In this document: piece after piece, positions 1 to 59,597 of the stretch
How positions within the stretch are numbered: the stretch's first letter is position 1
Layout: every line of letters starts with the position of its first letter
NCBI GenBank assembly: GCA_018304425.1
Contig: JAGVWE010000004.1
Coordinates: 254,121 to 318,120, forward strand
DNA from: Candidatus Iainarchaeum sp.
GTDB lineage: Archaea; Iainarchaeota; Iainarchaeia; Iainarchaeales; UBA10219
Direction of reading: 5' to 3'
DNA length: 64,000 nucleotides
Notes under the pieces: model-generated
Told to the model about the DNA's origin: nothing
Database searches by the model: none
The model's input: the letters and a program-made list of their open reading frames with translations, nothing else
Made by a program: the position numbers and the translations under genes

Positions 1-3000
1 TCCACGCGCACGCGGATGTTTTTCAGCAACTGTTCTTGTTTCTCGTTCTGGGCCTTGGACTTCACGACCACGCCGTACTGGCCGGGAACCTCTTCACCGG
101 CGAAGACCTGCACCTGCTGCGAGCCATCGCCGTCCAACACGAATTCCTTGACGGAGAGTTCGAGGTCGGACTTCAACTCGAAGCCGGTTTTCCCGCCGCA
201 CTTCTTCGTGTTAATCGTGAAGGAGGCGTTGCCTTTCTCGGGCATGGCGATGAGGTGCCGGTCGAAGCTCACGCAGTCCTTGATGTTCACGATGTTGATT
301 TGCGTGCCCAGCTTGGATTCCAGCAACTGGTCCTTGTCTTCCTTGGGGTTGCGCGCCGAAAAGGAGACGTCGGCCTTTGCCTCGCCCATGGTGCCGCCGT
401 AGGGCGTGAAGGTCAAAATCGCGTTCAGCGTTTCCCCGGCCTTCACTTCGCTGACGATGGCCCGGCTGTACGCGGAGCGCAACTCGACTTCGGTCTGGCC
501 AATGGTGACCCGGTACTCGCCCAACTGGTTGCCTTGGAAGGCGAGCTGGGCTTCGAGCCTGCGCAGGGGCACGGGCTGGCCGTTAATCGTGCAATTGTTC
601 TGGATCTGGAACTCGACGTTCACGGGGTTGCCTTCGGTGGTTGTCTCCCACTTGTTGCGGGTCAGGGTCAGGCAACCCGGGCTGTCAACATCGCCGGACA
701 AGCCGATGCCGATTCTGGCCGGTATTTCGAACACCCATTCCTGGCCAAAGTTGGTCACGGTCACCAGGAACTTGCCGTCCAAGTCCACGCGGTCGGTCAA
801 GGCCTTGCCGTCATCGCTTAAGAACACCCGGAGGGTGCCGTCCAGGGTCTGGCCCGGCTGGATGACGTAGTTATTGTAGTTCGAGACCAGCCAGTTCCTC
901 GTCTGCTGCTCGTCCAAGAGGTTCTTGAAGTTGCCCACCAACTCGATGGACAGCACTTTCAAGGGGAAGTTGGCCACGTTCTTGGCGTGGAAGCCGGTCT
1001 CGGCTTCGGGCTTGGACTTCGCGTTCAGGCTCATGCCCAACTGGTTGGGCTGGATTTCCAGGATGTTGGAGGTAACGGTTATCTCGGCTTCCTCTTGGTC
1101 GAACTTTTCCTTCTCGCATTGGAGCACGAGTTGCACGCCCGGCAACTGCGCGGGCACGCGAATCACGGCCCTTCCCTTGGAATCGGTTTTCGCCTTGACG
1201 ATGACGTTGCCCCGCTTGTCTTCCAGGCGGCAGGTGGCGTTGTCCACTTCGAGGTTGGTGCCGGAGTCGACGAGGTTGAAGACCAGGTCGTTTTCGATGC
1301 CGGAGGACAGCGTGCTCCGCTCTAACTGGATGAGCAGCTGCTTGGAGGCCGCCACCGCGACGTTGATGAACCGGTCGAAGGCAATCTGCTGGTCGGACAC
1401 CAGGCGGAAGTTGATGACCCCGTTGATGGCGCGCTGGGTGGCGAACCGGAACCGGCCCGTTATCCGCTTGTTGGGGGCCAGGTTGCCGACGTCCAGCCGG
1501 GGGAACTCGGGGCCGTTGACGTTGCCCACGCGCGGCCTCCCGTCCGCGTCGTTGACCGTGTAGTCCAGGAAGATGAGCGACAGGTCGGGGTTGGTTACGC
1601 GGAGGTTGGCGTTGGTGTGGTACAAGGCCTTCGAGTTGTTGGTGAGCGTGAAAATCATCTCGTATTCCGTGAACACCTGGGCCTGGTAGGTGTCGGTTAC
1701 GTTCTCCAAGAGGTCTTCCTGGAGGTTCCGGATGGACGCGTCAAAGCAGAAGTCCTGGTCGCAGAGGGTGCTGGCCCCGACTTGGTAGGTCTGCTTGTAG
1801 GCGTTGTCATACAATTCCGTGGTCTCGATGAAGTCATCCGCCGGGTCCCTGACCACGACCCCGTCAACGGCCCAGGCCCGGTAATAGACGTTCAATTCGT
1901 CGCCCACGGAAGCCGTTTTCCGCACCTGCACCGTGGCCTCCAACTCGTAGATGCCGGGCTTGGGGTTCCGCCAGTAGGCGTTCAGCCACTTCGCGTCCCC
2001 GTTCGTGTAATCGTAGCCGGACTCGTCGAGGCCGCTGCGCTCGTCGAAGGCCGTTGACTTGATGAGGCTCGCGCCCGGGGCATTGACTCCCTTGAGGTAG
2101 AGGTCATCCTTTTCCATGATGAGGTCGTCGCCGGTGCGGATGTGGAGGCCGGCCTCCTTGTAGGGGAGCGCATCCGGCAGCCTCAACTGCCACCTCCCCG
2201 TGTACTCTTCGCCGGCCGCCAGGTTGGTGGCCAGCCTTTCTCCCTTGAACAAGCCCAGGAACTTGACTTCGGCCGGCCGGTCGATGATGCTGGGTTCGAG
2301 GACCGCGGTGAAACCCGTGTACCCGCTGGCCTGGATTTTCCGGCTCGGCGAAACATACGTTGAATAACCGTCCTTGGCCGCGCTTACATAGACTTCCTTG
2401 TCGGCCTTGGTTTCAATGGAGAACGAGCCGTTCGCGTCCGTGTACGAGGCGCCGATTTTGCCGTTGGTCAGCGTGCTGTACACCGTCACCAGGGCAAAGG
2501 GAATGGCCTTGTTGTCCTTGTTGACCGCGTTCACGTAGAGGGTGCCCTTGCCCACCTGCATGGCCACCGTCACGTCAATGCCTCCACCGCTAGTGGTTCC
2601 GCCCCCGAACCGGAAGTCGTTGCTCCGGCCGGCGCCGAACTCGCGGAAGGCAAACGCGTAGTACAAGCCGGGTTTCACGCCCGCGAACCTTGCCAAACCG
2701 TTGGCGTCCGAGGTCTCGCTTTCATAGCCGGCCACGAAATTGGTTTCCGGCACGTACAAGGCCACGCTGGCATTGTCCACCGGGCTCCCGTCCTCGTCCA
2801 AAACCTGCACGGACAGCAACCCGCACTTCTGGGCCGAGCACTTTTCCAACGCGATTTCGGGGGTGTTCGCGGAAATCCGCGCGCTCGCCACTTTTTCGAG
2901 GACATAGCCTGCGGCTTCCACGGTCACCCGGTAGTCCACGTCGTCCGAGACGTTGAACACCACGACGCCGTCCGCACCCGTTTCAAGGGACTTGAATTCG

Positions 3001-4115
3001 CTGTCATCCGCGGCCAGCCTCAAGGTCACCCGCGCGCCGGCAAGGGCCTGGCGCGTGGCCTTGTCCACGATTTTGAACGCGATTTTTCCCTTCACGTTCG
3101 AGGTCAGCTCGAGGTTGACGGTCGCGCTCTGCCCGGCGTACACCGTTATGCGCTCGGATTGCCGCAAGCCATAGTTGCCGGTGGAGTCATAGGCTTTCAC
3201 GAGGTAACTGCCCTGGGGCTTGTTGAACACGGCCTGGCCGTCATAAGCAACCGTCGAGTCCACGGGCCCGACTTCCGGGTTCGCCAGCAGGTCCTCGTAG
3301 CGGAACAAGTCCACGTCCACGCCGCTCAGGGGCTGGCCCCGCGCGGAAACGTTGACGATGATCCGGCCGGCTTCGGCCACCACGCCTTCGAGGTAAACGG
3401 TTTTCACGTCCGAGTCCACGCTCACCGAGGCCAGGTTGGCCCACCGCTCGGAGTCGGAGATCGTTGCAATCAATTGCCCGCAGCCGGCGGGTTCTTCCAC
3501 GACGGCTTTCCCGTTGGAGACGACCATGGCGTCAGGCGCCTTCACGTAGGGGCTCTTGCACCGGAATTCCACGCGCAGTTCATCCGTAATCGGCTGGCCC
3601 AACTCGTTGAGGAACCGCAGGGTGCGCGTGCTCGCGCTCCCCGCCGCTGCCCCGCTTTTTTCGAGGGCAATGGTCTCGGTTTGCTCGTCCGCCGTGGCCT
3701 CCACGGACTTGGTCTGGCTCTTGTAGCCCTCGCCTCCCACGGTCAGGGTGACCTTGCCGCCCTTCGGCACCCGCAACTGCACCTGGCCAAAGGCGTCCGT
3801 GGTCAGGGCCTCGGTTTTTCCGTCCGAGTAGGAGACGCTGACCAGCATGTTGGGCAAGCCAATGTCCTCCGTGTCCAGCACCCGCACCGTGAGGCTGGTG
3901 TTGAAGCCCTGGAAGGCCATCGTGAAAGCGAAGTTGGCGGCCACGGCCAGCGCCACCAGGAACAGCAGGGCCATGATGGGGAAGCTGGGCAGGATGCGGT
4001 CAATGGGGTCAATGATTTTGTAGACCGGGATGACCTTGTCTATCTTGTCGAGTAATGCGTAGTAGCCGTCCTCGAGCTGGAAATAAAACTCTTTCAATCC
4101 ATCCAGGAAACCCAT
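1..4115 (-). CDS. Giant surface protein A (C-terminal part outside window)
   Basis: The frame is open from the ATG at 4115 to the window start, about 1371 residues, so the carboxyl end is missing. The N-terminus has a short cytoplasmic stretch with IPVYKIIDPID and LPSFPI followed by one hydrophobic anchor (about residues 47-68); the rest should lie outside the cell. It holds successive beta-rich repeats of the carboxypeptidase-regulatory/Ig type, each with an adjacent Gly-Asn or Asp-Gly turn, then a module with STLCDQDFC and later CLTLTR...NNCTINGQ, both matched in giants B and C. It starts 10 bases after the stop of B, so the two are probably one transcript. The family is an anchored surface protein or adhesin by architecture; ligand and function are unknown. 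Paralogy with B and C is seen directly; the surface location is inferred. Confidence 0.85.
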   Translation of the reverse strand, partial: MGFLDGLKEFYFQLEDGYYALLDKIDKVIPVYKIIDPIDRILPSFPIMALLFLVALAVAANFAFTMAFQGFNTSLTVRVLDTEDIGLPNMLVSVSYSDGKTEALTTDAFGQVQLRVPKGGKVTLTVGGEGYKSQTKSVEATADEQTETIALEKSGAAAGSASTRTLRFLNELGQPITDELRVEFRCKSPYVKAPDAMVVSNGKAVVEEPAGCGQLIATISDSERWANLASVSVDSDVKTVYLEGVVAEAGRIIVNVSARGQPLSGVDVDLFRYEDLLANPEVGPVDSTVAYDGQAVFNKPQGSYLVKAYDSTGNYGLRQSERITVYAGQSATVNLELTSNVKGKIAFKIVDKATRQALAGARVTLRLAADDSEFKSLETGADGVVVFNVSDDVDYRVTVEAAGYVLEKVASARISANTPEIALEKCSAQKCGLLSVQVLDEDGSPVDNASVALYVPETNFVAGYESETSDANGLARFAGVKPGLYYAFAFREFGAGRSNDFRFGGGTTSGGGIDVTVAMQVGKGTLYVNAVNKDNKAIPFALVTVYSTLTNGKIGASYTDANGSFSIETKADKEVYVSAAKDGYSTYVSPSRKIQASGYTGFTAVLEPSIIDRPAEVKFLGLFKGERLATNLAAGEEYTGRWQLRLPDALPYKEAGLHIRTGDDLIMEKDDLYLKGVNAPGASLIKSTAFDERSGLDESGYDYTNGDAKWLNAYWRNPKPGIYELEATVQVRKTASVGDELNVYYRAWAVDGVVVRDPADDFIETTELYDNAYKQTYQVGASTLCDQDFCFDASIRNLQEDLLENVTDTYQAQVFTEYEMIFTLTNNSKALYHTNANLRVTNPDLSLIFLDYTVNDADGRPRVGNVNGPEFPRLDVGNLAPNKRITGRFRFATQRAINGVINFRLVSDQQIAFDRFINVAVAASKQLLIQLERSTLSSGIENDLVFNLVDSGTNLEVDNATCRLEDKRGNVIVKAKTDSKGRAVIRVPAQLPGVQLVLQCEKEKFDQEEAEITVTSNILEIQPNQLGMSLNAKSKPEAETGFHAKNVANFPLKVLSIELVGNFKNLLDEQQTRNWLVSNYNNYVIQPGQTLDGTLRVFLSDDGKALTDRVDLDGKFLVTVTNFGQEWVFEIPARIGIGLSGDVDSPGCLTLTRNKWETTTEGNPVNVEFQIQNNCTINGQPVPLRRLEAQLAFQGNQLGEYRVTIGQTEVELRSAYSRAIVSEVKAGETLNAILTFTPYGGTMGEAKADVSFSARNPKEDKDQLLESKLGTQINIVNIKDCVSFDRHLIAMPEKGNASFTINTKKCGGKTGFELKSDLELSVKEFVLDGDGSQQVQVFAGEEVPGQYGVVVKSKAQNEKQEQLLKNIRVRV

Positions 4116-4125
4116 GTTCTCGACC

Positions 4126-4380
4126 CTAGTTTGCGGTAAGCGTTGCCTTCATTCCCCCGTGGATGCTGCAGCTGGCCTCGTGTTGGCCGGCGGGCAGCGT
4201 CACGCTCATGGACTGTGAAGCGCCCTTTTCGAGGATGACTTCACTGCCCCCTATGGCGAACGTATGCTTATTATTCCCGTTATTGGTGATATTAAACCTA
4301 ACCGTTCCCGCGTTCACCGTGGACGGGCTCAAGGCAATGGCGTTGTCGGTCAAAGTGGCGGTTACTTCCTGGACCTGCGC
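4126..4380 (-). other. Cupredoxin domain (type 1 copper site) of giant B
   Basis: The last ~80 residues of giant B form a plastocyanin/amicyanin-like fold by pattern: NAGTVRFNITNNGN, then KHTFAI with the first His ligand, then a Gly/Ser linker, VTLPAGQHEASC and CSIHGGM. The spacing C-x2-H-x2-M equals that of amicyanin. All four ligands are present, so the site should be functional. Such domains usually carry electrons between periplasmic or extracellular partners; no obvious partner oxidase is in this window. Confidence 0.8.
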
Positions 4381-7300
4381 GGGCTGCGGGGGCTTTGGCT
4401 GCGCCGCCGTCCCCTGCTCGGTTTGCTTCAGCAGTTCCGCCTGGTTCCAGTAGAGGTTCATGCCGGGCCCCTTGACTTCCGAGCCCACTTTCACGGTCTG
4501 GTCTTCCTTCATTTCCACGCAGACCCTGCCCTGGCCCAGGAGCTTCACGAGGTTCTCGAACGTGTAATCCGAGTTCAGCCGCTCGCCGCGCTGGTTGAGG
4601 GTAATCGCTTGCTCGCCTTCAATGGACTTGGCCTGGCCCTCGTCCCAGGCCGTGAGCTTGAACTTGTCCTTGCCGCAGTACACCTGGAGTTCGCTGGCCG
4701 TTACCTCTCCCGAGCGCGTGGGCACGAAGGTTACCGCCTTCAACACGGCCCGTCCATTCTTTGGCTGGTCGTCGAACATGACGGCATGGTACTTGTCGCT
4801 GCCCTTGCCCTTGCACAGCCGGCCCACGGCTTCCACGGTTTCCAGGAACTTGCCGGTCTTCCCGGTGATGGTGTTTGCACTGGCTTCCCACTTGATGAAC
4901 TCGTTGCCGGGCGTGGCTCCCTTGACGTTGAACTGGTAGATGAGGCCGGCCGGGGTGAACAAGTCCTTGCTGGTTTTCTCGACTTCCAACTGCAGGGGCA
5001 CGGGATCCGAGGGCTGGTAGATTAGCGCGCCGGGCACGTACTGGTCGTTGACTTTGCCGGTCGGCAGCACCAGGCTCAAGATTTTTCCAGTCTTGGTGTC
5101 GTCATAGCGGTTCACGTAATCGAACAACACGTGCCGGTAACCAGGTTTGTCGCCGCCAATGGCTTTCGCGACCCTGGCGCTCTCGCTGTCGGCGTAGGAG
5201 AAGAACATCTTGTCCTGCTCACCCGAATCCACCTTGTACGTGGTGCCATAGCCTTCCCGCAGCAACTCCGCACCCTTCAACCCGACCAGGTTGTCCAAGG
5301 GCAAGCCGAACAAGGGGTTCGAGGCAAACCGTTCGCGGATGGCCTTGAGGGGCTTCTCGAATTTCATGCGCACGATAACCATCCCGTCCCGGTACACCTG
5401 GAGCCTGACCCGGTACAAGCCACTATCGAACTTCGTGATTTGCTTGGGGTTCTTCTCGCATTCCTCGGAGTCGTCGCAGAACAGCCATTCCTTGAAGGGC
5501 TTCAACTCGCCCTTGGTGCCGCCGGCCGTCTTGCCCAGCTTGTCCTTGAAGGCTTCCTGGAAGTCGTCCTTGAAGTCGCTGCTCAACCCGTCCTCTTTCA
5601 GGTACGCGTTGAACTCGATGTTGTCCTTGTACAGCTTGTAAATGCCTTCCGAAGCGAACTTGTACCGGTCCTTGTAAGCGCTGACTTCCGCGACCCGGTC
5701 CAGGGAACCATCCCGCATGAGCTTCAGCTTTTCTTCTTCGGTCAAGCCCAGCTTGTCGCGGATGCCCACCCGGAACTCCATGGAGTCCTTCAAGAGGTTC
5801 AAGGCCTTCAAGGTGAGGGCCTTCTGTTCCGCGGCCGGCCTGGACTTGAAGGTGTCGAACACGAAGGACTCCGGGTTCGGCAGGCTGGCAACCGTTTGCT
5901 GGAACCGCTGGTATTCTTCGAGCGTCAACAAGTAGAAGCCGCCCTCGACGTCCACTCCATTGTAGGAGCCGGTGAACGAGTAACCCGTTTCCTCGAACGA
6001 GTGCGCGCCCAACTGCTTGAGCACGGCCTGGTACTCGGCGGGCGTGATTTTCAAGCCAATGGCTTTCGTGGGCGCGAACGGAATCTGGATGACCATGTCC
6101 CGCTGGATGTTCTGGAACTCGTCCAGCAGCAACCGGTTCGCCATGATTTCCCTCGTGCGGTCGACCAGGTTCTTGGCCTTGGCCGGGTCCCTCAGGCTTT
6201 CAATGGGGGCCTTTGCGGCCTGCAAGAACTGCAAGGCCAGCTGCTCCATGCGCGTGGTCAGCACGCCCAGGCTCTCGCCCCGCAGCAGGACGTTGTCCTG
6301 GGTGCCATCCCTTCCCACGAAGTAGAGCCTGTTCTGCATCGGGCTCTTGGAATCCTTGTCCACGCCCTTGAGGGTAACCGCCTTGATGAGGTGCTTGTAC
6401 AAGTACAGGGAACTAATCCGTTCGCCCAACGCGTTCTCTTTGGGCAGGTTCTTCATGGCCTCGCTGACCAGGGAAGCCTTTTGCGCCACGGACTCGCCGA
6501 ACTGCACGGCGTCGCAGAACTTATAATTGGTTTCATCCGGCTTGGCCTTGCCCAGCTTTCCATCGGCTCCCGCCTCGTACTCGTACTGGCCGCACGTGAA
6601 GGGGTTCACGCCCTCCTTTTTCTCGCCGCCCCACCGCCAGTCGAACAACAGCTTGTCAAACCCGTAATCGGTTACCACGCCCTGGCCTGACTTGCCGTTC
6701 TCGCACGCGAACTGGTCGGTTGCCTTGACCTGCACCTTCCTCGGCTCGCCTTGGTTGATGCAGAAGTTCAGGGGCAGGATGACATTGCCCCGCTTGCCGT
6801 TGATGGCCCTTTCCACGGTTACCGTCACGGTCTCCGAGAACTTCGTGGCCCGGCCGTTCCAGCCCCCGGCCTCGTTGTCCTCGCTCGCGTCCACCCGCAT
6901 GATAATGTCGTGGCCGCCCTTCGGCATTTCGCCGCCCAACAGGCCGCCCAACGTGAAGATGGTCTGGCCCAGCGAGCGCAGGTTCTCTTCCAAGGAATAG
7001 CGGTTGATTTCAAAGCTCACCACGACGCCGTTCTTCTCGATGCGGTTGTCCTTGACCTGGATGCCGGTGATGCGGTCCATTCTCCCGCAGCCGCCGACTT
7101 CGCCTCCCGGGGTCTGCTTTGCGAACCGGAAGAAGGGCATCGGCATGTCCTTGGCCGTGTCGTACACGTACACCCCGCCGTTCTTTTCCAGGAGGTCAGC
7201 GGGAATGCAGTCGTTTTCGGTGCCCTTAAAGGTGTGGTTGCTCAGCTTGAAGGCGTCCGGGTTCAGGCAGGACTGGGGCGTCGCGTTGGGGTCTCCATAA

Positions 7301-10300
7301 CTCATCCAGCGCTCCGCGAACTCGCCCAATGCGAGCAGGTCCTGGATGGTGACGTGGAAGACCCTGGAAGACCTGGAGCCCAGCCGGTTCGAGAAGAACA
7401 CGACCAGGTCGGTGGGCGCGTTCACCCGGTAATAGCCGGCCGTGGCGAAGTAGCTGAGGTTGCCCAGCTTGGCCATGGGGCTGCCCTCGAAGGGGAAGGG
7501 CGGGGCGTTGTTCTGGTACTGCTGGGTGTTGGGAATCAAGTCAAAGGAAACGATTTGCGTGACCTTGCCCGTGGACTTGGTTTCAAGCCGCTCGCCTTTC
7601 ACGCTCCACGACAAAATCATGTCCCGGTTCGAGAAGCTGATGGACGAGGGCACGGGCTCCACGCGGATGCCTTCCGCGTAACACTTGTTGATGACCTCGA
7701 GTTTCTTGGGCTTGCCCACGAAGTTCTGCAGGCTGATGGTGCCGGCAGGGTCGATGTCGATGCAGTCGGAGTAGCTGCGGCTGAACTCGTTGTCCACCGT
7801 CACGGTGATGGTGCGCAGCGGCACGGAGGGCTCCTTCGAGTTCTTGAGCTTGCCCCTGGCCTCCACCGAGTAGTTGCCCAGCACGTAGGACGACTGCACG
7901 GAAACGGTTTGCTCGCTGTTGGGTTCGAGAACAACCGACCGCTGGGGGCTCACGAGCAGCCCGGCCTCGGGGTTGAAGTCGATGACCACCGCGGAAGCGC
8001 AGTTGTTTTTCACGCCGAAGTTGCTGCTGTTCCCCTTGGTCTGGCCCGTGGCCTGGCCGCCGTACACGTCGTAGTTGTAGTTGGGCGCGCGGTAGTCCGA
8101 GTACGGGTAAGCGCGGAGGTTGGCCGGGTAACTCGAATACTGGGAGTTATAGGTGGCCTGGTTATAGGGCTGGTTGTAGTAGCCGTAATTCGGGTTGTTG
8201 ACCTGGTCGGGGTAGTTCTGGGGATAGGGCTGCCGCGTGCCCGGGTCAATGGGCACGCCTTGCTCGTTCACCACGTACTGGGAGCTGGACACCGGCACGT
8301 TGGATTGCGGGTTCTGGTAACCGGAAAACGGCTGCGTGACCCCCGTGCTATACCCGTAGGAATTCCGGTACGCGTCGGGGATGGCGTAATTGAAGGGGTC
8401 ATACGTCGTGTTGGCATTGTATTGCCCGTAGCCGAGGTTGAAGGGGTTCGAGGAAACGACCAGCTTGTCGGCTCCAATGAATTCAACGCATTGCACGAGG
8501 TCGTTGATGCGGACCAGGGCCCGCACGTTCTGCGTCAGCCGTTCCTGGCCCGAAGCCGTGTTATGCGCCGCCGTGAACACGAGGGTCGGCTTCGACTCGC
8601 CGGAAGAAACCTCGGCCGGCTTGAATTCCAGGGTAAGCGGCACTTCCGCGTTCTCGGCCAACACGTTCAAGGCCTTGGCCGGCTGGTTGGTCAAGCGCAC
8701 CCGGTTCGCGCCGCCCTCGGAGGCGTCCACCGAGAGGAAGAACTCCCCCAAGGGGTTCTTGTTGGCTTCCACGACCTTGACTTCAACATTCGTCAAGGGA
8801 ATGGCCTGGCCGTTCACCGCACAGTTGTTTTTGAGCGTCAATTCATAGGTTTTCACGCCGGCGTTCGTGGAAATCTCGAGGTCCTGGGGGAAGACGCTGA
8901 AGCAGCCGGCCTCATCCACTTCGTCGCCGAACCCGATGCGCAACTCGACGGGGATGCTGGCCGTCCACTGCCGGTTGAACTCCCGGTTGGACACCACGAC
9001 GTCCAGGCTCCCGGAAACCTTCTTGGGCTCCAGGATGCGCGCAGCCGCGGGCGTCAAGCCGATGACGAACTGCAGGTTCTGGTCGCTGTTGGTGGGAAGC
9101 TCGGTGCCCGCATAGCTGTCCGCGAAAGTGAATTTGAAGAACTCCTTGAAGGCCGTGCTCTCCCGGACTTCTTCGACGACGAGGGGGATTTCGGTCTGGT
9201 TGCCGAGGAAGAGGGAGTGCTCTTTTTCGGGGTTCGAGCCGATGACCAGCAAGTCCTTTATCTGCCCGGGCCGCACCGTGAGGATGTTCTCCGAAACCGT
9301 GATGACCCTTTCCGTGGACCTATACCCCGGCTTTTCCACCAAAACCGTTATCTTGGAGCCGGCCCCGGTGGGGGTCAACTGGTAGACGAAGATGCCTTCC
9401 GAGTTCGTCTTCCCGCTGACGAGGGTAACGTCATTGCGCCGGATGGTCACGGTGGCATCCGAAATCGTGTTGTCGGTTCCCTTTTCCGTGACCTTGATGA
9501 GGAGGTTGTTGTTGATGAAGGGCACGATGATTTTCGGCAGCACTTCCAGCTCCATTTCGGCGGCGGCCAGGACGTTCAGCCTGATCCTCCGCTCGAACAC
9601 CCTCTGCCCCTGGGACACCAGCGAGACCACGACATCCGTTACCCCCTCGCGCTTGGTCCGGAGTTTCACGCTGCCGAACACGTCGTCGTCCCTTCCCATG
9701 TTCCCCACGGGAACCACCAGCTGCGAGCCGTCCAGGGTGCCCTTCTTCTCCATGCCCGAGACGTCCGTGACGCTGTACTCCGAGAACGAGACCGCGGAGG
9801 CCGCGTTCTCCACGTGGAGTTCCGTGCTGTTGAACTGCCGGTCCGAAATGCTGGTGACCGTGAAGCTCAGCTTGTAACTGCTCTGGATCCTGGCGGGATA
9901 GTCTTCGAGGACCGCCGTCTGGATGCCCGTGCCCAAATCCTCCAAGCCAAAGGTATAGCAGAAGGCGTCATCGCACAACGTGCTGGGGCCCGCGCTGAAC
10001 GACCGGGTCTTCGTGTTCGCGTAGAGGTCATACCTTCCCGCGACCGACACCTTGCTGCCCAGGATGTTGTCGGCCGGGAACCGGATGAAGCCTCCCCCAG
10101 TCTTGGCCCAGCCCCGGTAATGCAGGGGCAATACCGTGCCGAGGGGCACGGTGTCCCGCACCATCACGTCGGCTTCGGCCTCGTAAATGCCGCCCATCGC
10201 GTTGGGGAACACGATGTTCGCCCACTTCCCGTTGCCGGTGGTAAGGCGCGTGGAGTCAATCGAGTACCCGTCGTAGGGCGTGAACGACTGCCCCCTCGTA

Positions 10301-12309: not shown

Positions 12310-12373
12310 ACCCGACCTCAACCCCTTAAATCACTAAATAATTTTACTCGATTAATATACTTTGTTGGGTGAT

Positions 12374-14213: not shown

Positions 14214-14220
14214 CGAGCAA

Positions 14221-14242: not shown

Positions 14243-14245
14243 TAG

Positions 14246-16597: not shown

Positions 16598-16630
16598 CGT
16601 TTTCCGCCTTTAATAACATTACTTGGTGAA

Positions 16631-16645
16631 CTTATATAAATATAC
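16631..16645 (-). promoter_or_regulatory. TATA-like promoter of the 208-aa/574-aa operon
   Basis: TATATTTATATAAG on the minus strand is 34-48 bases before the ATG at 16597. It separates this operon from giant C, whose stop is at 16667. Confidence 0.5.
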
Positions 16646-16666
16646 TTCGGCTTTGCCCCTTGCCCC

Positions 16667-19600
16667 TCACGTGGCCCGCGTGGCGTTCCACCGGGTATAC
16701 GTGTCATATAACTCGTCCAGGTCCGGCTCGGCAGGCGCGCGGTACTTCTTGCCATAGGCTTGCAGGACGCACGCAAACTGCTGGGCTTCTTCTCCGGGGC
16801 AAGCAGCCAGCAGGGACTTGACTTCCCCGGCCGCGCAGTCAAAGCTCTCGGCAAGGCCCTTGAACTTGGGGTCGGGCTTGCCGCACCCCGTGATGTACTC
16901 GTAATTGGTTTTCGCGCCCAGGTCCGTTTGCCAGATGCCGAGGACGATCAGCAGGGCCTCTGGCACCCCGGCTTTTGCCGCTATCTCCGTCGAGTGATGC
17001 CCAATGGCTTCGTAATAGGTTTTCACGTACCTTGCTTCCGTTTTTCCTTTTTCGCCCCACAACCCGGCGTTGGGCCGCAAATTGTGCAGGGCCTTGGAAA
17101 CGTCCTTGTCAAACGCCTTGCCCGTGCAGTCCTCGAGCTTCTTGCTCTGGTCCACCGCTGCTAGGTCCGTTACGAGTGAAATCTTTTTCTCGACGAAGTC
17201 GCCCACGCGCTTCATGGTCACCTTGTAGGTCTCGCCCCGCTTGAACTTCTCGTCCGGCATCTCCGCCGTCACAACCTTTCCGTCCGGCGTCTTCACGGTC
17301 GCGGACGCGACAATGCTTTCCGTGGGAGTAATGGGTTCGGCGGCGAACTGCCAGTACGCTTCCCAAGCCAGCAACCCCATGAACTGCGCGAACAACCCGG
17401 AAACCACGCCGCCCAACAACTTCAAGGCGCCCTTGCCGCTCGCCTTCAAGATAGTGTCAGTAAAGAATTTCTTGATGGCCCCCGAGCCCTTGCCCTTGAC
17501 TCCGGTCTTCCGCATTTCCTCGAGGATGTCTTTCATGATTTTTTCCTCTTTTTCGCCGAGGGCAACGGATTCCTTGGCTGAAAGGGTTTGAACACCGGCC
17601 AGCGCACTCCACACGGTTTTCTCGGCTTTCACCACATCAGCCACCCTTGCATTGACGGCGGCGGTGAGCTGGTTTTTGGCAATGCTGCCATTGCTGGTCC
17701 ACACCGCGTCGCGCAAGGCATGCTCTACTTCCTGCCTCACCGCTGCCCTAAAGGGCGTTGCGCCAGGCGTTGGAATAAGGCCCCCACCTGCCTTGGTTTC
17801 AATGGCATCCACAATCTTGGGCGCAAGTTCATCCGACCACTGCATAATCTGGGCATTGCCGCCTGGACTGAAATCGGTTACGTTCCAGCCACCCACGTTC
17901 CTTCCCGGCGTAAAAGTTCGCAGCATGTTCTTGGTGTTGATGTTGTCAGGAAGGATTGCACTCTTGAACGCCGCTTCCACGTTCTCGCTCGTCAGCTTTT
18001 TCAACGCGGCTTCGTCGGCTTCCGTGATGAGTTTCCTCGCCTCTGCCCTGAGCGCCGTGTCGAAGTGACCCGCCCTGAATGCGGGCCGGTTGAGAACCAC
18101 GGGGGCCACTTCCTGCCGCGCCTTCAACAAGGCTTCCTGCAACTCCGTTTCAGTCAACTGCTTGCCTTTCGTGTAATAGTTGTCGAACAAGTATTTCTCG
18201 AGTTCTTCCGCGTACTCCCTGTTGAAAGTTTTCCTGGCGGTTTTGTCCAATGAATCCAGTTGCGCGGTCCACCGGGCGTTGCTTTCAGCGGTGGCAAGCT
18301 CTTCCGATACCTGGCCAAAGATTTTTTTGGCGCTTTTTTCGGTCAACGGCTTCTTCAGCTCCGGGATGACCAATTCCTTGGCCGCGCCCTCGGCGCCAGC
18401 CAGTTTGGCCCCCTCTTCCACGGCTTCCTTGACCGCGGCCTCTCCGCCGCCGGCCGCAGCCGCCTTCTCCAATGCCGTGCCAGTAACCCTCCGGATGGTG
18501 GCCGGGATGGCCGGAATCACTACCTTGCCGGCCGAACTGCCAATGCCCACCGTCACCAGCATGTCCTCGGTCTTGCTCTTGAAGTCCTCCAAGTCCTTTC
18601 CGCTCGCCTTTCCGCTGGCAATCTGTTCGGCCTGCGCCTGGAAGTCCGCCACCTGTTTTTCGGTCACGGTTTCCGGCGAACCCAAACCAACGGTGCGCTT
18701 GGCAGTCGAGTAAACCCCGGAACCCGCCTTGGAAATCGTGGTTCCCACCTTGCCCAAGACGCCGGCGTAATCCAAGCCAGCGACGCCAACGGGAACTATG
18801 CAGTCCCAGAAGAAGCTAAAGGCCCCCACCGGGAAGCCGGCCGCAGCCGCAATGAACTTGGCGCTCCCGCACCCGACCAGGAAGACGCCCAGGCCGCCGA
18901 ACTTCTGCAACGTGAACTTCTTGTCATACGCAGTCTGCCCCTCGGCCGGCGCGTCCGCCAAAATCTTGGTGGCGTCGTCCATCCGCGCCTTGGCGTCCTC
19001 GAGGTTCTTCAAGTTGCTCAACGTGATTTCGTCGGGGCCGCCCTTCCAGCCCAGGGTGGCATACAATTCCTTGGTCTCGCCATCCGCTAGCGGTTCCTTG
19101 GCGATGCGGTCCATGAAGTCATAGGGGTGCAGGGCGCACACCTGCAGGGAAACGGTTCCGTCCTTCGCGGCCTTCTTGGCGTGCACCGCGGACTGCGCGC
19201 CCAACACGAGCTTCTTGCCCTGCACCATCTGCGCGTGCGCGTCGCCCAACGCGCACACCTGGAAGTTCTTGTAATAGCGGCCCTTCAAGTCCTTTTCCTT
19301 CAAGTCCATGGCGGAAAACGCCTGCGCGCCCACTTCTTCCTTCCGGGTTTCCTCAAAGGGCTTGCCGCGGTACACCCGTTGCTCGCGGTTCTCCACCTGG
19401 GCCTGCACGTAGAATTCCTTCAAGCCGTTGAACGCCGTTTCCTGCTTCACCGACACCTTGACCGGCTCGGAGACGTCGCTGAACACGTTGAAGTCACAGC
19501 ACGCGGTGTTCTGGCTGACCGTCAACGGGTTCGGGCAGGCGTTGAGCTCCAGTTGCCCGATTTTCTCGGTGGACTTCAACCAGAACGCGTTCTCGTTGTC

Positions 19601-22600
19601 CGTGATGCAGCCATCGATTTTGCGCTCGCTGAGCTCCCGCATGGCCAGCGCCGCGCTCTGCACGATTTGCTTTTCGACCTTGGCCTTCGCGGCCTCCTCG
19701 CCGCCCTCGAAGTCCTTCACCAACGCGTTAATCGTCATCTTCTGGCCGGCCTCCGTGGAGCGAATCAGGTCGAGTTTGACGAGGTAGCCCTGCGTGTCCC
19801 CGGTGGCCAAGCGCACCCGGTTGAATTCCGGCTCGCCTTTCCGGACCCGCTTGTCCGAGTTGAACAGGGAGGACGCGAACTCCTTGGCCAGGCCCTCCAT
19901 TTTGTCGTCCGCATAAGTCACCAGGCCGGGCCAGGCGTTCCGCGTGTTGTCCGCCGAGTAGCCCGCGTCCAGGGGCAGGAACGCCATCGCGTTCTGGATT
20001 TTGTTCTCGCATTGCTGGGTCAACTGCCGCACGTTTTCGCCTTCCTCCAATTCAGAGCGCAAATCCAGGTAAACATCCATGGCATCTGTAATCATTCTCC
20101 CGCCCTGCACCTTGACCGCGCCCGACAGCCGGGCCTTGTAGAGGCCGCAGCCCTCGAAGGCGTCGGAGAAGAAGAGCTGCTTGCCGTAGCCCGTGGCCAG
20201 GCTCTGCCGGTACTCGTCTTCCGTGGCCGGGAACTTGACGTTGTAGGCGTTCAACTCCGGGGCCTTCTTCGCGAAGCCGTCCTTCAACGCTTCCACGCTG
20301 AGCACGTCGTTCGCGAAATAGACTTCGAACTTGTCGGGCCGCAAGCCCAGGTTCTCGAACAGGCAATAGCCTTCGTTGAGGGCCGCGTTGTCCGCATAGC
20401 AACCCGTGTTCGCGACCTCGTTCTTGTAGTGCGCGGTAATCTGCTTCTGCGCGTCCCGCAGCTTTTCCTGGATGCGCTTGGCCAGGAACTGGCCCAACTG
20501 CTCGGCATCGCAGTAAGCCTTGTCGCAGTCCGCCTGCTTCGCGATTTTGGGGAAGGAAACCTTTTTCCGCTCGTTTTTGTCGCACACCGGGATTTCCTCG
20601 GGCTCGGTGGCGGCCTCGCCTTTGAGCGTGGCCGACTTGCCCAACTCCAGCTGCACGCTGATTGGCTGCGAGGAAACGAATTTGTTGCTGCGCACCAGCA
20701 ACGCGCGCAAGTACACCGGCACCGGGCTCGACGTGAAGTAGGCCTCGTTCTTCTTGAGCGTCAAATTGACCGTGGTCGAGGCCCCGGGGAAGAGCACCGT
20801 GTCCTTGACCGCCAAATCCAGTTCGTTGGCGCCAATCCGCTTGGGTTCCGCGCCCAAAACCCGGACCTCTTCCGCGCAACTGTTCTTGACGGTCAGGGCT
20901 TCCTGCAAGGCCCCTTCCGTGGCCCGCTTGGACTTGAACTCAATAAACGCGGGACTGACCACCAGGCATTGCTTGGGCGAGATGTGCACCGTGACAATTA
21001 TGGGGCCGAAGTCATGGGTTTTCCCGTTGATGATGCCCCGCATCCCGATCTCCTGGACGTCCAGGGGAGTGGTCTTCTCGGTCCGCTGCGCCCTCGCCAC
21101 CACGTAATAGGGGGGCATGAGGCTCTGGCCCCGCCGCAGCACCTGCACCGGGAACTTGGGCTCAATCTCGATCTTGGCGTTCCCGGACTGGAACCTTCCC
21201 CCCACCGAGAAGCTGAGGTTCTGGATGTCCGCGTACCCCACGTTGGTCGCATAAATGGGCACCGTGACCTTGGCCTCTCCCACGCCAGTATCCGACAGGT
21301 AAACGTCGATGTTCCTGGACACCTGCAAGGCAGAGTCCTTGTTCCACAACACGACTTCCAAGGGCAGGGACTTCGACAACAAGTCGCTCCTGAACCACAC
21401 GTCGTAGAGGAACCGCTGCTTTTCCGCGTAATTCCGTTCCAGTTCGTTGACCACGCTGACGTTGATGGTCCGGGTGTCGGTCTGGCTTCCCGCCGGCCCC
21501 AGCAAGAGGTTTTCAACGGCCACGCGGATGCTCTGGTCAGGCACCCCCACCGGCACCACGGCTGACTGCAACTCGACTTCCGTGGCGCACTTGTTTTTCG
21601 CCGTAATCTGCACGGCCTGCGTGCTCGCCGGCTCGGTCAACAGGTAGGTCACGAGCCGCGCCGAACTGAATTCCACGCAGTTGGGGTCCAGCGGCCGGTT
21701 GTAGTCCAGCACCACCCGCGTCTGCGCTTCGACGCGGAACTTGCCAAAAATCCGTCCCCTGAAAATCACGTCGGCTTCGCCGTGCGCGCGCTCGGCCTTG
21801 CCGCTGTACTCGCCTGCCACCGTCACCTTGCCACTGGCATTGGGTTCAATCGCGTTCGGCGGCGTAACCCGCAGGTCCAGGTCCTCCGGGAAGTCCCCTA
21901 TCTTCACGACTTCAACGGTGAGGTCCTGCACGCGGTCCGAAGAGGTATTCCGCAAGTCGAACCGCTCGTCCGCGTTCTTCTGCCCCTTGGGGATGTTGAC
22001 TTCCACGGCTTGCGGCGCCGTTAACACCCCGTCCCGGCCTATTTCGACCACGCCTTCCAGGGGCTTATAGTCGGCCGCGTTGGCCGTGAACCGCAGGGTT
22101 CCCGCGGGAAAAGCGTTCTTGACTAGGTACAAGCCGTTCAAGCCCTTGTTCACGGTGCCCGTGCCCTGGATGACCCGCAGGGGCGCGTTGCCTTCGCCGT
22201 AGAACGTCAGGACCGCCCGCTCAACAAAGGAACCGTCCCCGGCCTTCAACAAGACCGTGAAGTCCTGTCCGACCAGGACGCGGTCGGGCGAGACCGTGGC
22301 CGTCATGCCCTGGTCCTGGCTGACCTCGAAGTTGAAGTTCTGCGTCACCGCGCTCACGGCCGAAATCAATTGCACGGTCAAGGCCGCCGAACCCTTTTCC
22401 ACGGCCTTGAAGTAGAGCCGCACCTGGACCGGGCCGCCCGGCAAGACCTTCAAGTCCTTGGCCGTGAGGTCCGTGTCCGTCGAATCCTTATCCGGGAAGT
22501 CCGCGAACTGTTCCACGCCGTAACCCGTGAAGAAAATCTTGGGCGCGTTCCTCGAAGTCGCGCCCTTGACCGTGACGCTGACTTCCCGTGCGGGCGCGAC

Positions 22601-25078
22601 CTCGACTTCCAAGGCATACTTGTTCCCCACCACCGCGTGGAAGTTGCCGGCCTCGAACACGGTCCCGTCTTCGGCGAGGAACCGGTAGGTCGCGCAGAAC
22701 TCGTCCTTGCAGGTGGGCCGGGCGTTGAACACCGGCACGTCGACGCGGTTGGTTTCCGCGTACAAGCCCGTGCGCTGGGCGGAGAACTCCAGGCCCTCCA
22801 ACAACGGATCCCTGGGCAGCCTATAATAGGCCGAGCCAATCCGGGTCCAGGCCCGGTAATACAGGGGATACGAGCTGCTGGCAGCGGTTTCCTTGGCTTT
22901 CAACCGCACCTTGTACACGCGTTCCGCCGCGCCTCCCTCGTGATACAATTCCAGCCACCGGTTGTATTCCCCGGGCAAGCCCCGGTTCCGCAAGTCAATG
23001 CCTTCGAAGCCGGGACTCGGCTGCGGCGTGTAACTGCGTCCATACGCGAACCTGGGAGCCAGGCCCGTGAAGCCAATGATGCCCGCATCGCTGGAGTCCG
23101 CGAACCTGATTTCGTCGGGCCCGAACCGGAAGTGCATGCCGCCCACGTATTTCCCGTCCGGCCACGCCGTCTTGAACACCGCGTAATAGTCCTGGCCCTT
23201 GACGATTCCCTCCACCTTGTTCCCGTTGGGGTCCTCGAAGCCCATGAACTGGACTTCGGGGGCCAGGCCCGTGACCTTCTGCTCGCCAATCGTGAGGCTC
23301 AAGGCATTCTTGCCTTCCACGAAGACCTCTTCCTCGAACAACGCGCCATCCCGGCCCGTGTAACTCACTTTCACGGTCTTCAAGCCGCCGGGGTTGAAGT
23401 ACACCGTGCCGCCCGTTACCGGGCCCGAGTAGAGGACGTTGCCGCTCGTGGACGACACCACGATGTTGCCCGCCGCCATCGGCTGGCCCTGCGCGTCCAC
23501 CAAGGACAAGGCGAACACGCCTCGGTCGGTTTTCATGAAGATTTCAAGCCGGTTCTCGGCCCTCGCATCCGTTGCCAGGGAGGCCTCGCCTTTCTCGTTT
23601 TCCTTGACGGCCGTGACCAACAGCGTTTTGCCGACGGGAACCACCGCCTTGGCGTAGCCCGTGATGTCGGTCCTCGTCTGGGAAACGCCTAACGGCAACT
23701 CGCCCCCCGCCACGGACTCGTAGAAGGTCAGCACCGCGTCGTTGGCGGCATCGCCCTTGGAGTCGGAGACGAACACGCTCAGGGTAGTCGAGTTGTCAGG
23801 CGCGGCCCGCGCCAACGGAAGGGTGTACTCGGTTTGCTGTTGGGCGTTGACCTCGATTCGGGCCGGCAGATACCGTTCCGCGTTGGCCGTGACGTAGTAC
23901 TTTTGCTGCGCGTCCAGGTTCCGGAAGTAAACGTCTCCACCGAACTGGGTCAAGCCCGAGTCCATGAACTCGGCTTGCGCGTCATACAATTCCACGGCCG
24001 CGTTGGACAACACGAGGCTGCTGTCCTGCGCCGTGACCGTGACGTGAATGGATGCGCCGCCCTTGCGGAGCTCGACTTGCACGACCTCGCTGTCGTCCCG
24101 CAGGGTCTTGCTGATGAGTTCAACCGAGGAGTCGAAGGCAATGTAGCCCTCCGCGGATACCACGTACCGGATGCTCGTGCCCTTGGCTATCTTCGTGAAG
24201 TATTCCCCGTCCTCGTCCACGTCGTCCAGGATGAGCTCGCCGCTCTTGGCGTCATACACCTTGACCGAGACCTCGGGCACCAGGGTCTTCGAGTCCGCGT
24301 CGAACACCCTGAAAATCGCGTTGGACAAGCCGATGGTGGCGCTGGCCTTGGGCGGAACCTCCAGTTCCGAGGTCGAGCCCTCGGAGAACCGCAGGACGAA
24401 CGCCTTTTCCTCGTAGTTGTCCGCGTAGACCTTCAATTCCACGTCCTCGCCTTCGGGAACGCCGAGGCAGGACACCAGGCCGTTGCCTTCGACTTCGCAG
24501 GAGATTTCCTCGCCCGTGGAAAGCCGTGCCACGACCTTCGCGTTCTTTATCTGGTCCTTGGTCTGCGAGTCAACCAGGGAGAGCCTTCCCAGGATGGTGC
24601 TGACTTCCTTCTGCAACTGCACGGCCACGCTGGCAGACTTCTCGTTGACCTTGACTTCGCCGGAACCCGACAGGTAACCTTCCTTGGCGCCCACGACTAT
24701 CAGGGTCGCGCCAATCGGCACGCCCTTAACGGCAACCGTTTCCCCGTCGCGTAGCACGTCTTTTTCGAGGGCAAACCGTTTGCCGTCCTCGCCCTTGACC
24801 TGGACTTGCACGCCGCTGACCGGCTGGCTGAACTGGTCCACGAAATGAGTGGTCAATTGCACGTCATAGCTGGTGCCCACGAAGACCAGGCCCAGCACCA
24901 GGCCCAACACCACCAAGAACAAGGCGGTGAACACGGGGAAGGCGGGAATGCCGCGTTGTTCCAACGCGTCAATCAAGCCGTAGACCGGGAGCCCCTTGCC
25001 GTCCAGGAAGTCGGCGAAGCCAAAGAACCGCTCCTCCAAGGCCGAGTAAAAGCCGCCTAACATCTCCGACAAACCCAT
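16667..25078 (-). CDS. Giant surface protein C, paralogue of A and B
   Basis: 2803 aa. The N-terminal tag has LPVYGLIDALE and IPAFPV before an anchor at about residues 48-70. Then come beta-rich repeats like those of A and B, the shared module ending in CKDEFC, and Cys-paired beta domains. From about residue 2050 the protein changes character: hydrophobic stretches near 2080-2130 and 2565-2590 enclose an Ala/Glu/Lys-rich helical region. The last ~120 residues (GVPEALLIVLGIWQTDLGA, then four Cys) resemble by eye the helical start of lysozyme/transglycosylase-like domains, where a Glu is normally catalytic; here the place has Gln-Thr-Asp, so activity is doubtful. AGGT lies just before the ATG. 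Role unknown; an adhesin or a delivered effector are both conceivable. Confidence 0.85.
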   Translation of the reverse strand: MGLSEMLGGFYSALEERFFGFADFLDGKGLPVYGLIDALEQRGIPAFPVFTALFLVVLGLVLGLVFVGTSYDVQLTTHFVDQFSQPVSGVQVQVKGEDGKRFALEKDVLRDGETVAVKGVPIGATLIVVGAKEGYLSGSGEVKVNEKSASVAVQLQKEVSTILGRLSLVDSQTKDQIKNAKVVARLSTGEEISCEVEGNGLVSCLGVPEGEDVELKVYADNYEEKAFVLRFSEGSTSELEVPPKASATIGLSNAIFRVFDADSKTLVPEVSVKVYDAKSGELILDDVDEDGEYFTKIAKGTSIRYVVSAEGYIAFDSSVELISKTLRDDSEVVQVELRKGGASIHVTVTAQDSSLVLSNAAVELYDAQAEFMDSGLTQFGGDVYFRNLDAQQKYYVTANAERYLPARIEVNAQQQTEYTLPLARAAPDNSTTLSVFVSDSKGDAANDAVLTFYESVAGGELPLGVSQTRTDITGYAKAVVPVGKTLLVTAVKENEKGEASLATDARAENRLEIFMKTDRGVFALSLVDAQGQPMAAGNIVVSSTSGNVLYSGPVTGGTVYFNPGGLKTVKVSYTGRDGALFEEEVFVEGKNALSLTIGEQKVTGLAPEVQFMGFEDPNGNKVEGIVKGQDYYAVFKTAWPDGKYVGGMHFRFGPDEIRFADSSDAGIIGFTGLAPRFAYGRSYTPQPSPGFEGIDLRNRGLPGEYNRWLELYHEGGAAERVYKVRLKAKETAASSSYPLYYRAWTRIGSAYYRLPRDPLLEGLEFSAQRTGLYAETNRVDVPVFNARPTCKDEFCATYRFLAEDGTVFEAGNFHAVVGNKYALEVEVAPAREVSVTVKGATSRNAPKIFFTGYGVEQFADFPDKDSTDTDLTAKDLKVLPGGPVQVRLYFKAVEKGSAALTVQLISAVSAVTQNFNFEVSQDQGMTATVSPDRVLVGQDFTVLLKAGDGSFVERAVLTFYGEGNAPLRVIQGTGTVNKGLNGLYLVKNAFPAGTLRFTANAADYKPLEGVVEIGRDGVLTAPQAVEVNIPKGQKNADERFDLRNTSSDRVQDLTVEVVKIGDFPEDLDLRVTPPNAIEPNASGKVTVAGEYSGKAERAHGEADVIFRGRIFGKFRVEAQTRVVLDYNRPLDPNCVEFSSARLVTYLLTEPASTQAVQITAKNKCATEVELQSAVVPVGVPDQSIRVAVENLLLGPAGSQTDTRTINVSVVNELERNYAEKQRFLYDVWFRSDLLSKSLPLEVVLWNKDSALQVSRNIDVYLSDTGVGEAKVTVPIYATNVGYADIQNLSFSVGGRFQSGNAKIEIEPKFPVQVLRRGQSLMPPYYVVARAQRTEKTTPLDVQEIGMRGIINGKTHDFGPIIVTVHISPKQCLVVSPAFIEFKSKRATEGALQEALTVKNSCAEEVRVLGAEPKRIGANELDLAVKDTVLFPGASTTVNLTLKKNEAYFTSSPVPVYLRALLVRSNKFVSSQPISVQLELGKSATLKGEAATEPEEIPVCDKNERKKVSFPKIAKQADCDKAYCDAEQLGQFLAKRIQEKLRDAQKQITAHYKNEVANTGCYADNAALNEGYCLFENLGLRPDKFEVYFANDVLSVEALKDGFAKKAPELNAYNVKFPATEDEYRQSLATGYGKQLFFSDAFEGCGLYKARLSGAVKVQGGRMITDAMDVYLDLRSELEEGENVRQLTQQCENKIQNAMAFLPLDAGYSADNTRNAWPGLVTYADDKMEGLAKEFASSLFNSDKRVRKGEPEFNRVRLATGDTQGYLVKLDLIRSTEAGQKMTINALVKDFEGGEEAAKAKVEKQIVQSAALAMRELSERKIDGCITDNENAFWLKSTEKIGQLELNACPNPLTVSQNTACCDFNVFSDVSEPVKVSVKQETAFNGLKEFYVQAQVENREQRVYRGKPFEETRKEEVGAQAFSAMDLKEKDLKGRYYKNFQVCALGDAHAQMVQGKKLVLGAQSAVHAKKAAKDGTVSLQVCALHPYDFMDRIAKEPLADGETKELYATLGWKGGPDEITLSNLKNLEDAKARMDDATKILADAPAEGQTAYDKKFTLQKFGGLGVFLVGCGSAKFIAAAAGFPVGAFSFFWDCIVPVGVAGLDYAGVLGKVGTTISKAGSGVYSTAKRTVGLGSPETVTEKQVADFQAQAEQIASGKASGKDLEDFKSKTEDMLVTVGIGSSAGKVVIPAIPATIRRVTGTALEKAAAAGGGEAAVKEAVEEGAKLAGAEGAAKELVIPELKKPLTEKSAKKIFGQVSEELATAESNARWTAQLDSLDKTARKTFNREYAEELEKYLFDNYYTKGKQLTETELQEALLKARQEVAPVVLNRPAFRAGHFDTALRAEARKLITEADEAALKKLTSENVEAAFKSAILPDNINTKNMLRTFTPGRNVGGWNVTDFSPGGNAQIMQWSDELAPKIVDAIETKAGGGLIPTPGATPFRAAVRQEVEHALRDAVWTSNGSIAKNQLTAAVNARVADVVKAEKTVWSALAGVQTLSAKESVALGEKEEKIMKDILEEMRKTGVKGKGSGAIKKFFTDTILKASGKGALKLLGGVVSGLFAQFMGLLAWEAYWQFAAEPITPTESIVASATVKTPDGKVVTAEMPDEKFKRGETYKVTMKRVGDFVEKKISLVTDLAAVDQSKKLEDCTGKAFDKDVSKALHNLRPNAGLWGEKGKTEARYVKTYYEAIGHHSTEIAAKAGVPEALLIVLGIWQTDLGAKTNYEYITGCGKPDPKFKGLAESFDCAAGEVKSLLAACPGEEAQQFACVLQAYGKKYRAPAEPDLDELYDTYTRWNATRAT

Positions 25079-59589: not shown

Positions 59590-59597
59590 TCATTCCC

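What the first reader, a model, noticed from the sequence alone, without database searches (positions are those of the whole stretch)
1..25078. Three giant paralogues share an unusual N-terminal cytoplasmic tag
Giants A, B and C begin with a short soluble stretch bearing (I/L)PVYxxID and (I/L)PxFP before a single anchor, then unrelated-length beta repeats and a shared C-x3-FC module. Conservation of the cytoplasmic tag while the exterior diverges suggests that the tag is recognised by something, such as an assembly motor or sorting factor.
Basis: partly seen in the sequence, partly recalled or inferred. Interest (0 to 1): 0.8.

Follow-up and report, generated by a model that had tools for sequence, protein, structure and literature searches.

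The report
Conserved inner tag of giant surface proteins
Giant surface proteins of a whole phylum of tiny archaea (Diapherotrites) share one short stretch predicted to lie inside the cell, which is among their best-conserved parts, and their genes sit beside a pilus-type motor in an arrangement kept across the phylum, so the giants are probably built into, or held by, a cell-surface machine not yet described.

Summary
Giants A, B and C share a 44-48-residue N-terminal segment before a single anchor; a fourth giant just outside the window and a fifth elsewhere in the genome carry it too. A profile finds it in 81 of 87 genomes of the phylum (25 of 25 high-quality ones), only on giant proteins of one family. 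It is among the best-conserved stretches of each giant: 50-58% pairwise identity, against 24-31% for the anchor and about 20-42% outside. Topology evidence puts it in the cytoplasm. The four giants are orthologous classes in fixed order, in a phylum-conserved superlocus with a divergently transcribed type IV filament ATPase and platform, at least seven prepilin-like families and an archaeosortase-like enzyme; a giant lies within 23 kb of that ATPase in 22 of 23 informative genomes. "Recognised by something, such as an assembly motor" is well motivated but unproven: no partner is identified, and tag-tag assembly is a live rival. "Sorting tag" is weakened, because the tag never sits on unrelated proteins. 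The exteriors are homologous, not unrelated. New variant of a known kind, with a new undescribed domain.

The parts
3978..4115 (-). cytoplasmic tag of giant A (46 aa)
   Evidence: AF2 helices 3-28 and 32-41
12178..12309 (-). cytoplasmic tag of giant B (44 aa; true start ATG at 12309)
24935..25078 (-). cytoplasmic tag of giant C (48 aa)
1..4115 (-). giant A (class 3), N-terminal 1371 of 2659 aa; CarboxypepD_reg repeats; continues outside the window to about C3:250256
4126..12309 (-). giant B (class 2), 2727 aa; CarboxypepD_reg repeats, C-terminal cupredoxin-like domain
12486..14213 (-). F2: large prepilin-like protein (K-GFTLFTALV...), between giant classes 1 and 2 in the loci compared
16667..25078 (-). 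giant C (class 1), 2803 aa
35980..36570 (-). F6: exosortase/archaeosortase-like enzyme with conserved Cys, Arg, His
38443..40752 (+). F3: T2SSE (archaeal type IV filament-like) ATPase, divergent from the giants
40758..43064 (+). F7: T2SSF-type platform protein, 768 aa
43069..43515 (+). F8: prepilin-like protein (RGQ + hydrophobic stretch)
43584..44102 (+). F9: prepilin-like protein; a second, partial copy lies at 43828-44616
45667..46392 (+). F11: prepilin-like protein (true start probably internal)
46397..47038 (+). F12: prepilin-like protein (GFTLSKLNLLI)
46936..47550 (+). F18: prepilin-like protein (KGFIGPLGDDLPSLIP; start probably internal)
47256..48371 (+). F13: prepilin-like protein (RGQAAITDALFFL; start probably internal)
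49851..54698 (+). F21: ~1600 aa secreted protein with C-terminal LPSLPE + TM + basic tail (predicted archaeosortase substrate)
58505..61926 (-). second T2SSE (60403-61926) with two T2SSF genes (58505-59416, 59598-60410), same superlocus

Best explanation
The tag is a small conserved cytoplasmic domain: a ~26-residue helix, then a short Pro-Val-Tyr...Ile-Asp helix running into the anchor. It belongs to one family of four orthologous giant surface proteins (plus, in most genomes examined, a solo member elsewhere) that are standard parts of a phylum-specific envelope machine of the type IV filament kind. The giants insert N-in/C-out, with the beta-sandwich string forming an external stalk. The tag gives the cytoplasmic end a specific docking surface (a Tyr-Glu-Tyr-Asp stripe on helix 1 and the P-V-Y-x-x-I-D and P-S-F motifs at the membrane). 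A membrane-proximal partner, most plausibly the platform/ATPase module encoded divergently beside the giants, binds it and so gathers, positions or pulls on the giants. SHOWN by computation: tag, conservation, gene quartet, synteny, prepilin-like neighbours. PREDICTED: topology and helices. INFERRED: that a partner exists, and that it is this module.
For: Tag identity 50-58% within each class against 24-31% for the anchor and about 20-42% for exterior blocks. Among 46-residue windows the tag ranks 1st in class 2; in class 1 only overlapping tag windows score higher; in classes 3 and 4 it ranks 9th and 11th of more than 1100. E15, P30 and P43 are invariant and Y11, Y19, D23, Y32, D36 are at 93% or more in 45 diverse tags; Y11-E15-Y19-D23 lie four apart. 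Cytoplasmic side: K+R before the anchor exceed those after it in 80 of 94 copies; one copy has a soluble 140-aa Lys/Glu-rich extension before the tag, and the solo copy in this genome has two earlier hydrophobic segments that place the tag in a cytoplasmic loop. AF2 pLDDT 87: helices 3-28, 32-41, anchor 44-68, then beta domains. 81/87 genomes have the tag, 25/25 high-quality ones. Giant classes match locus order in the tree. The T2SSE ATPase F3 is in 69/87 genomes (24/25) and lies within 23 kb of a tag giant in 22 of 23 genomes with both on one contig, divergent in 19. T2SSF, prepilin-like and archaeosortase-like genes recur in order.
Against: No partner has been shown. Linkage is broken in one reduced genome, G003: giants at 233-270 kb, ATPase at 709 kb, archaeosortase-like gene at 73 kb. 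Solo tag giants lie away from the locus. Giants and ATPase are both near-universal, so co-occurrence is uninformative. Tags are only slightly more alike within a genome than between genomes (0.462 v 0.433), and the anchor shows the same bias, so co-adaptation to a lineage-specific partner is not demonstrated. A conserved tag is also expected if it only binds other tags.
Confidence: 0.45

Rival explanations
1. The tag is an oligomerisation domain: the four giants bind each other through their tags and anchors, making a hetero-oligomeric stalk base. No cytoplasmic partner is needed; the neighbouring filament machine is a separate part of the same envelope locus.
For: A fixed quartet of orthologous classes in fixed order. 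Class-specific tag forms, with one extra residue after the first helix and another before the PSFP motif in classes 1-2 (G-IPVY...IExxxIPSFP) against classes 3-4 (IPVY...IDxxIPSFA). Tags slightly more alike within a genome than between.
Against: Solo tag giants occur away from the quartet. The most conserved helix positions are charged or aromatic (Y-E-Y-D), not an obvious coiled-coil core.
Confidence: 0.27
2. The tag is a membrane-insertion or topology element: an amphipathic interfacial helix plus Pro-rich turn that fixes N-in orientation and helps a very long nascent chain insert, recognised only by the general SRP/Sec apparatus.
For: The helix is aromatic-rich and ends at the membrane. The only weak PDB sequence resemblance was to an apolipoprotein-like amphipathic helix (E 0.64, not significant). 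K+R are enriched on the tag side.
Against: General insertion does not need residue-level conservation; the anchor itself is free to vary (24-31%). Within E <= 1 only giants matched in 12 genomes, apart from one 20-residue chance match, so other single-pass proteins there lack the tag.
Confidence: 0.15
3. The tag is only the start of a duplicated N-terminal module (tag, anchor, first exterior domains); its similarity is common descent or gene conversion rather than selection on the tag.
For: All tag proteins also share the first exterior domains, and tags are slightly more similar within a genome.
Against: The classes predate the families compared: classes 1 and 2 at 100/100, class 3 at 94/89. 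The adjacent anchor and exterior have diverged far more in the same proteins.
Confidence: 0.06
4. The conservation reflects a nucleic-acid or translational constraint at the 5' end of very long genes rather than a protein interface.
For: In most copies the tag is the first coding stretch.
Against: In L083 the tag lies at residue 142 and in the C1 copy at about residue 107 of the open frame, with residue-level conservation kept; the conservation pattern follows a helix face and motifs.
Confidence: 0.03

Closest known systems
Archaeal type IV filament systems (archaellum, adhesive pili, Tad-like)
   Same: T2SSE ATPase whose best NCBIfam match is the archaellum ATPase FlaI (138.6 bits, well below its 550 cut-off), then TadA; T2SSF platform; several short proteins with prepilin-like N-termini. 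DPANN islands with unrecognised pilins beside FliI/TadC have been noted (PMC6393860).
   Different: Four tagged giants, a large prepilin-like protein between them and an archaeosortase-like gene form the core; Pfam named none of the prepilin-like proteins as pilins. The main text of the 2016 survey of archaeal type IV pili does not mention DPANN or Diapherotrites (PMC4858521).
Giant membrane-anchored 'SPEARE' proteins of Nanohaloarchaeota (PMC10266531)
   Same: Giant surface proteins of Ig-like domains with an anchor and a cytoplasmic part, linked to a secretion-type ATPase; proposed for host contact.
   Different: Those are single proteins of about 9000 aa with a VirB4/TraG-like ATPase domain fused on the cytoplasmic side; here four proteins of 2200-3400 aa with a 45-aa tag and a separate T2SSE ATPase.
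Giant1-5 surface proteins of Apilactobacillus kunkeei (PMC12863079, abstract only)
   Same: Consecutive genes for very large extracellular proteins in a small genome.
   Different: Bacterial, 3000-8000 aa; no link to this tag or to a type IV filament locus was looked for.
Gram-positive shaft/basal pilins and alpha-2-macroglobulin/TEP MG-domain strings
   Same: The exterior of giant A folds as tandem beta-sandwiches; Foldseek E about 1e-13 to TEP1/A2M and 1e-10 to EbpB; VIA Z 10-14 for single domains or pairs.
   Different: Fold similarity of common beta-sandwich strings only; no evidence of the same function.

Membership tests
Archaeal type IV filament system (the superlocus) | secretion ATPase of the T2SSE family | tested here: met
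   PF00437 over cut-off for F3 and for the second ATPase
Archaeal type IV filament system (the superlocus) | T2SSF-type membrane platform | tested here: met
   PF00482 over cut-off for F7 and two further genes
Archaeal type IV filament system (the superlocus) | prepilin-like subunits with a class III-type leader | tested here: met
   F8, F9, F11, F12, F13, F18, F2: short leader, G-Q or G-F, hydrophobic stretch, conserved across genomes; pattern only, no curated pilin model reached its cut-off
Archaeal type IV filament system (the superlocus) | prepilin peptidase | not tested
   not sought genome-wide
Archaeal type IV filament system (the superlocus) | a filament is actually made | not testable with these tools
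   needs microscopy or biochemistry
Exosortase/archaeosortase family (F6) | above a curated signature cut-off | tested here: met
   TIGR04178 39.7 bits against 23 for the G013 orthologue; Pfam EpsH 22.5, below its 25.7 cut-off
Exosortase/archaeosortase family (F6) | conserved Cys, Arg and His/Arg | tested here: met
   Cys of LCTG, Arg of NxxRI, and a His followed by F-R invariant in six orthologues
Exosortase/archaeosortase family (F6) | substrate with motif-TM-basic C-terminus | tested here: met
   F21 with LPSLPE (LPSLPQ in one) in 12 of 12 C-termini read; processing itself untested
SPEARE giant proteins | VirB4/TraG ATPase domain within the giant | tested here: not met
   no such domain in the Pfam scan of the window giants; giant A was scanned for its first 1371 aa only
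Portable N-terminal sorting signal | same tag on unrelated mature proteins | tested here: not met
   E <= 1 search of 12 genomes: only giants of one family plus one 20-residue chance match

The most novel reading that the evidence does not exclude
Diapherotrites carry a phylum-defining surface machine in which a type IV filament motor acts on four giant stalk proteins through a shared cytoplasmic tag, with a dedicated archaeosortase processing one large surface protein (LPSLPE signal): a contact or invasion apparatus of a kind not known in other archaea.
Probability: 0.25. Interest if true: 0.85.

Novelty: new variant of a known kind. Interest (0 to 1): 0.64.

Why it matters
I found no described surface machine for Diapherotrites in the literature I could search. 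A gene set kept across the whole phylum, costing about 30 kb for the giants alone in genomes of roughly 0.8-1.5 Mb, must do something important, possibly contact with other cells. The tag gives a small, testable handle: one peptide to use as bait for the rest of the machine. It also adds a domain that no Pfam model covers and a likely archaeosortase-substrate pair.

Tried and rejected
Tag against Pfam, 45 members: scattered weak hits only. PDB sequences: nothing significant. Viral contigs: none. Search of other phyla by name was not possible; the only evidence outside the phylum is the motif scan of genome contigs. Short tag ORFs in loci (85-900 aa) are mostly broken giants: relatives of the giant continue in frame after a stop or in another frame just downstream; the 497-aa one continues as PKD-like repeats in another frame. 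Co-occurrence of tag and ATPase across genomes: both near-universal, so uninformative. Within-genome v between-genome tag similarity: small effect, also seen in the anchor, inconclusive. Structure of the C-terminal 700 aa of giant B: mean pLDDT 66.5. Its Foldseek top rows were class II viral fusion proteins, at probability <= 0.13 and TM of at most about 0.1; VIA-align listed none in its top 50, so I treat this as noise; only the cupredoxin-like end was recovered. A lysozyme-like tip of giant C is my reading of the sequence and was not confirmed by Pfam.

Full report
WHAT IS THERE. The window is contig C3:254121-318120 of a 1.48 Mb genome whose relatives in the genome collection are mostly labelled Diapherotrites (Iainarchaeota) archaea. 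Giants A, B and C are real long frames, and each begins with a 44-48-residue soluble segment before a single hydrophobic anchor. The own genome holds five such proteins: a fourth tandem giant, Z (2375 aa), just upstream of the window, and a fifth on contig C1 whose gene is shifted in a Cys-rich repeat region. Giant D (26533-34098) has no tag.

HOW WIDESPREAD. A five-row profile matched 49 of 53 relatives; a 45-row profile matched 81 of 87 genomes of the phylum and 25 of 25 of those at least 90% complete. In twelve genomes searched down to E 1, every credible match lay in a giant frame of 1169-3447 aa, except the broken C1 copy. Apparent short copies in loci are mostly giants broken by stops or frame shifts, with the rest of the giant or its repeats just downstream. 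A motif scan of 84,980 species returned 65 confirmed stretches, all in archaeal records; most are labelled Diapherotrites, and some labelled otherwise (for example L065, 'Micrarchaeota', and L049, 'Thaumarchaeota') have the same frame lengths as tag giants of genomes in this phylum. That scan needs the exact motif, so distant forms elsewhere are not excluded. No Pfam model, solved structure or viral contig carries the tag.

CONSERVATION. Among orthologous giants of seven genomes from seven families (six genomes for class 1), mean pairwise identity in the tag is 50, 57, 58 and 53% for classes 1-4, against 24-31% for the anchor and about 20-42% for 200-residue blocks of the exterior. With 46-residue sliding windows the tag is the best window of class 2, the best non-overlapping window of class 1, and in the top 1% of classes 3 and 4, where another exterior block scores slightly higher. 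Fixed or nearly fixed positions are Y11, E15, Y19, D23, P30, Y32, D36, P43 (giant A numbering). The first four are spaced by four, one stripe of helix 1.

TOPOLOGY AND FOLD. AlphaFold2 on residues 1-960 of giant A (46 aligned sequences, mean pLDDT 87; 75-82 in the tag) gives helix 3-28, helix 32-41, an anchor helix 44-68 and then a string of beta-sandwich domains. These resemble MG-domain strings, Gram-positive pilins and similar folds. Lys+Arg in the 40 residues before the anchor exceed those after it in 80 of 94 copies. In one relative the tag follows a 140-residue Lys/Glu-rich soluble stretch. In the C1 copy it follows a signal-peptide-like segment and a transmembrane segment, which would put it in a cytoplasmic loop. 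These agree on a cytoplasmic tag but are predictions.

FOUR ORTHOLOGOUS GIANTS IN FIXED ORDER. A maximum-likelihood tree of the first 700 residues groups giants by their position in the locus, not by genome: class 1 100/100, class 2 100/100, class 3 94/89; class 4 is not resolved, but one origin is not ruled out. The quartet is therefore older than the families compared. Most genomes examined also have one or more tag giants away from the cluster.

THE SUPERLOCUS. In the genomes compared the order is largely the same: a divergent operon of a ~760-aa T2SSE ATPase (F3), a ~770-aa T2SSF platform (F7) and six small proteins with prepilin-like N-termini, then outward a ~1500-aa secreted protein (F21) and a second T2SSE/T2SSF set; on the other side an archaeosortase-like gene (F6), giant class 1, a large prepilin-like protein (F2), giant class 2, class 3 and class 4. 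(For G007 only the giant side is on the contig read.) In this genome extra genes, including giant D, are inserted. F3 is found in 69 of 87 genomes (24 of 25 high-quality), F2 in 62, F6 relatives in 77. In 23 genomes with F3 and a tag giant on one contig, 22 have them within 23 kb and 19 are divergent; G003 is the exception at 440 kb. These positions were copied by hand. Linkage shared by descent is not a set of independent trials, but it has survived across many families and into a second order of the class (G086).

MECHANISM. The cytoplasmic tag is the only part of the giants that a cytoplasmic motor or platform could touch, it is more constrained than the anchor beside it, and its giants are encoded beside such a motor. 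I therefore take docking to the locus's own membrane machine as most likely (0.45), tag-tag assembly of the giants as the main rival (0.27), and an insertion/topology role as third (0.15). A general sorting tag is unlikely, because the tag never appears on unrelated proteins. What the machine does is open. One class-1 giant (G012) ends in an Amidase_2 domain (E 9e-30), which would fit action on a bacterial wall, but this is one genome and I did not confirm related domains in others.

KNOWN OR NEW. Type IV filament loci with unrecognised pilins in DPANN archaea have been noted in general (PMC6393860), and giant anchored proteins tied to a secretion ATPase are described in Nanohaloarchaeota (PMC10266531). 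I found no description of this tag, this quartet or this superlocus in the papers I could search; most subscription journals and all bioRxiv preprints were outside that library.

Noticed in passing
window 35980-36570 (-) and 49851-54698 (+): A likely dedicated archaeosortase-substrate pair: F6 (archaeosortase-like) and F21, a ~1500-1700 aa secreted protein ending in an LPSLPE motif, a transmembrane segment and a basic tail. The C-terminal profile matches essentially one protein per genome, in 61 of 87 genomes and 24 of 25 high-quality ones; no NCBIfam sorting-signal model reached its cut-off.
   Followed up: partly
G023, G010, G065, G022, G025, G021, G037 (F3 orthologues): The F3 ATPase is interrupted in frame by a large insert in these genomes (frames of 1225-1835 aa; profile breaks near position 489-495, or 552 in G037), as expected for inteins. 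The inserts were not examined.
   Followed up: no
L140:6303-7202 (-), class-1 giant of G012: C-terminus is an Amidase_2 (N-acetylmuramoyl-L-alanine amidase) domain, E 9e-30, on a surface protein of an archaeon.
   Followed up: partly
window 16670-17230 (-), end of giant C; also L135 end of the G013 class-1 giant: About 170 residues that read to me like a lysozyme/glucosaminidase-type helical domain with the catalytic Glu replaced; related tails occur in L086, L052 and L068. Pfam gave no support.
   Followed up: partly
window 4126-4420 (-), end of giant B: Cupredoxin-like domain at the very C-terminus (PF13473 just over cut-off; VIA Z about 6).
   Followed up: no
window 26533-34098 (-), giant D: 2500-aa protein with an anchor-like N-terminus, a VPTP-rich repeat linker and long coiled-coil-like stretches; no tag and no relatives in the other superloci compared.
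   Followed up: no
window 43584-44102 and 43828-44616 (+): Duplication of the F9 prepilin-like gene; the second copy keeps the C-terminal part (62% identical over 129 residues) but has a different N-terminus in the frame read.
   Followed up: partly
window 34956-35630 (-) and about 44624-45472 (-): Two acylphosphatase-like proteins inside the superlocus; Pfam confirms the first, the second begins similarly (GNVQGVGYRAYVKQVARGL).
   Followed up: no
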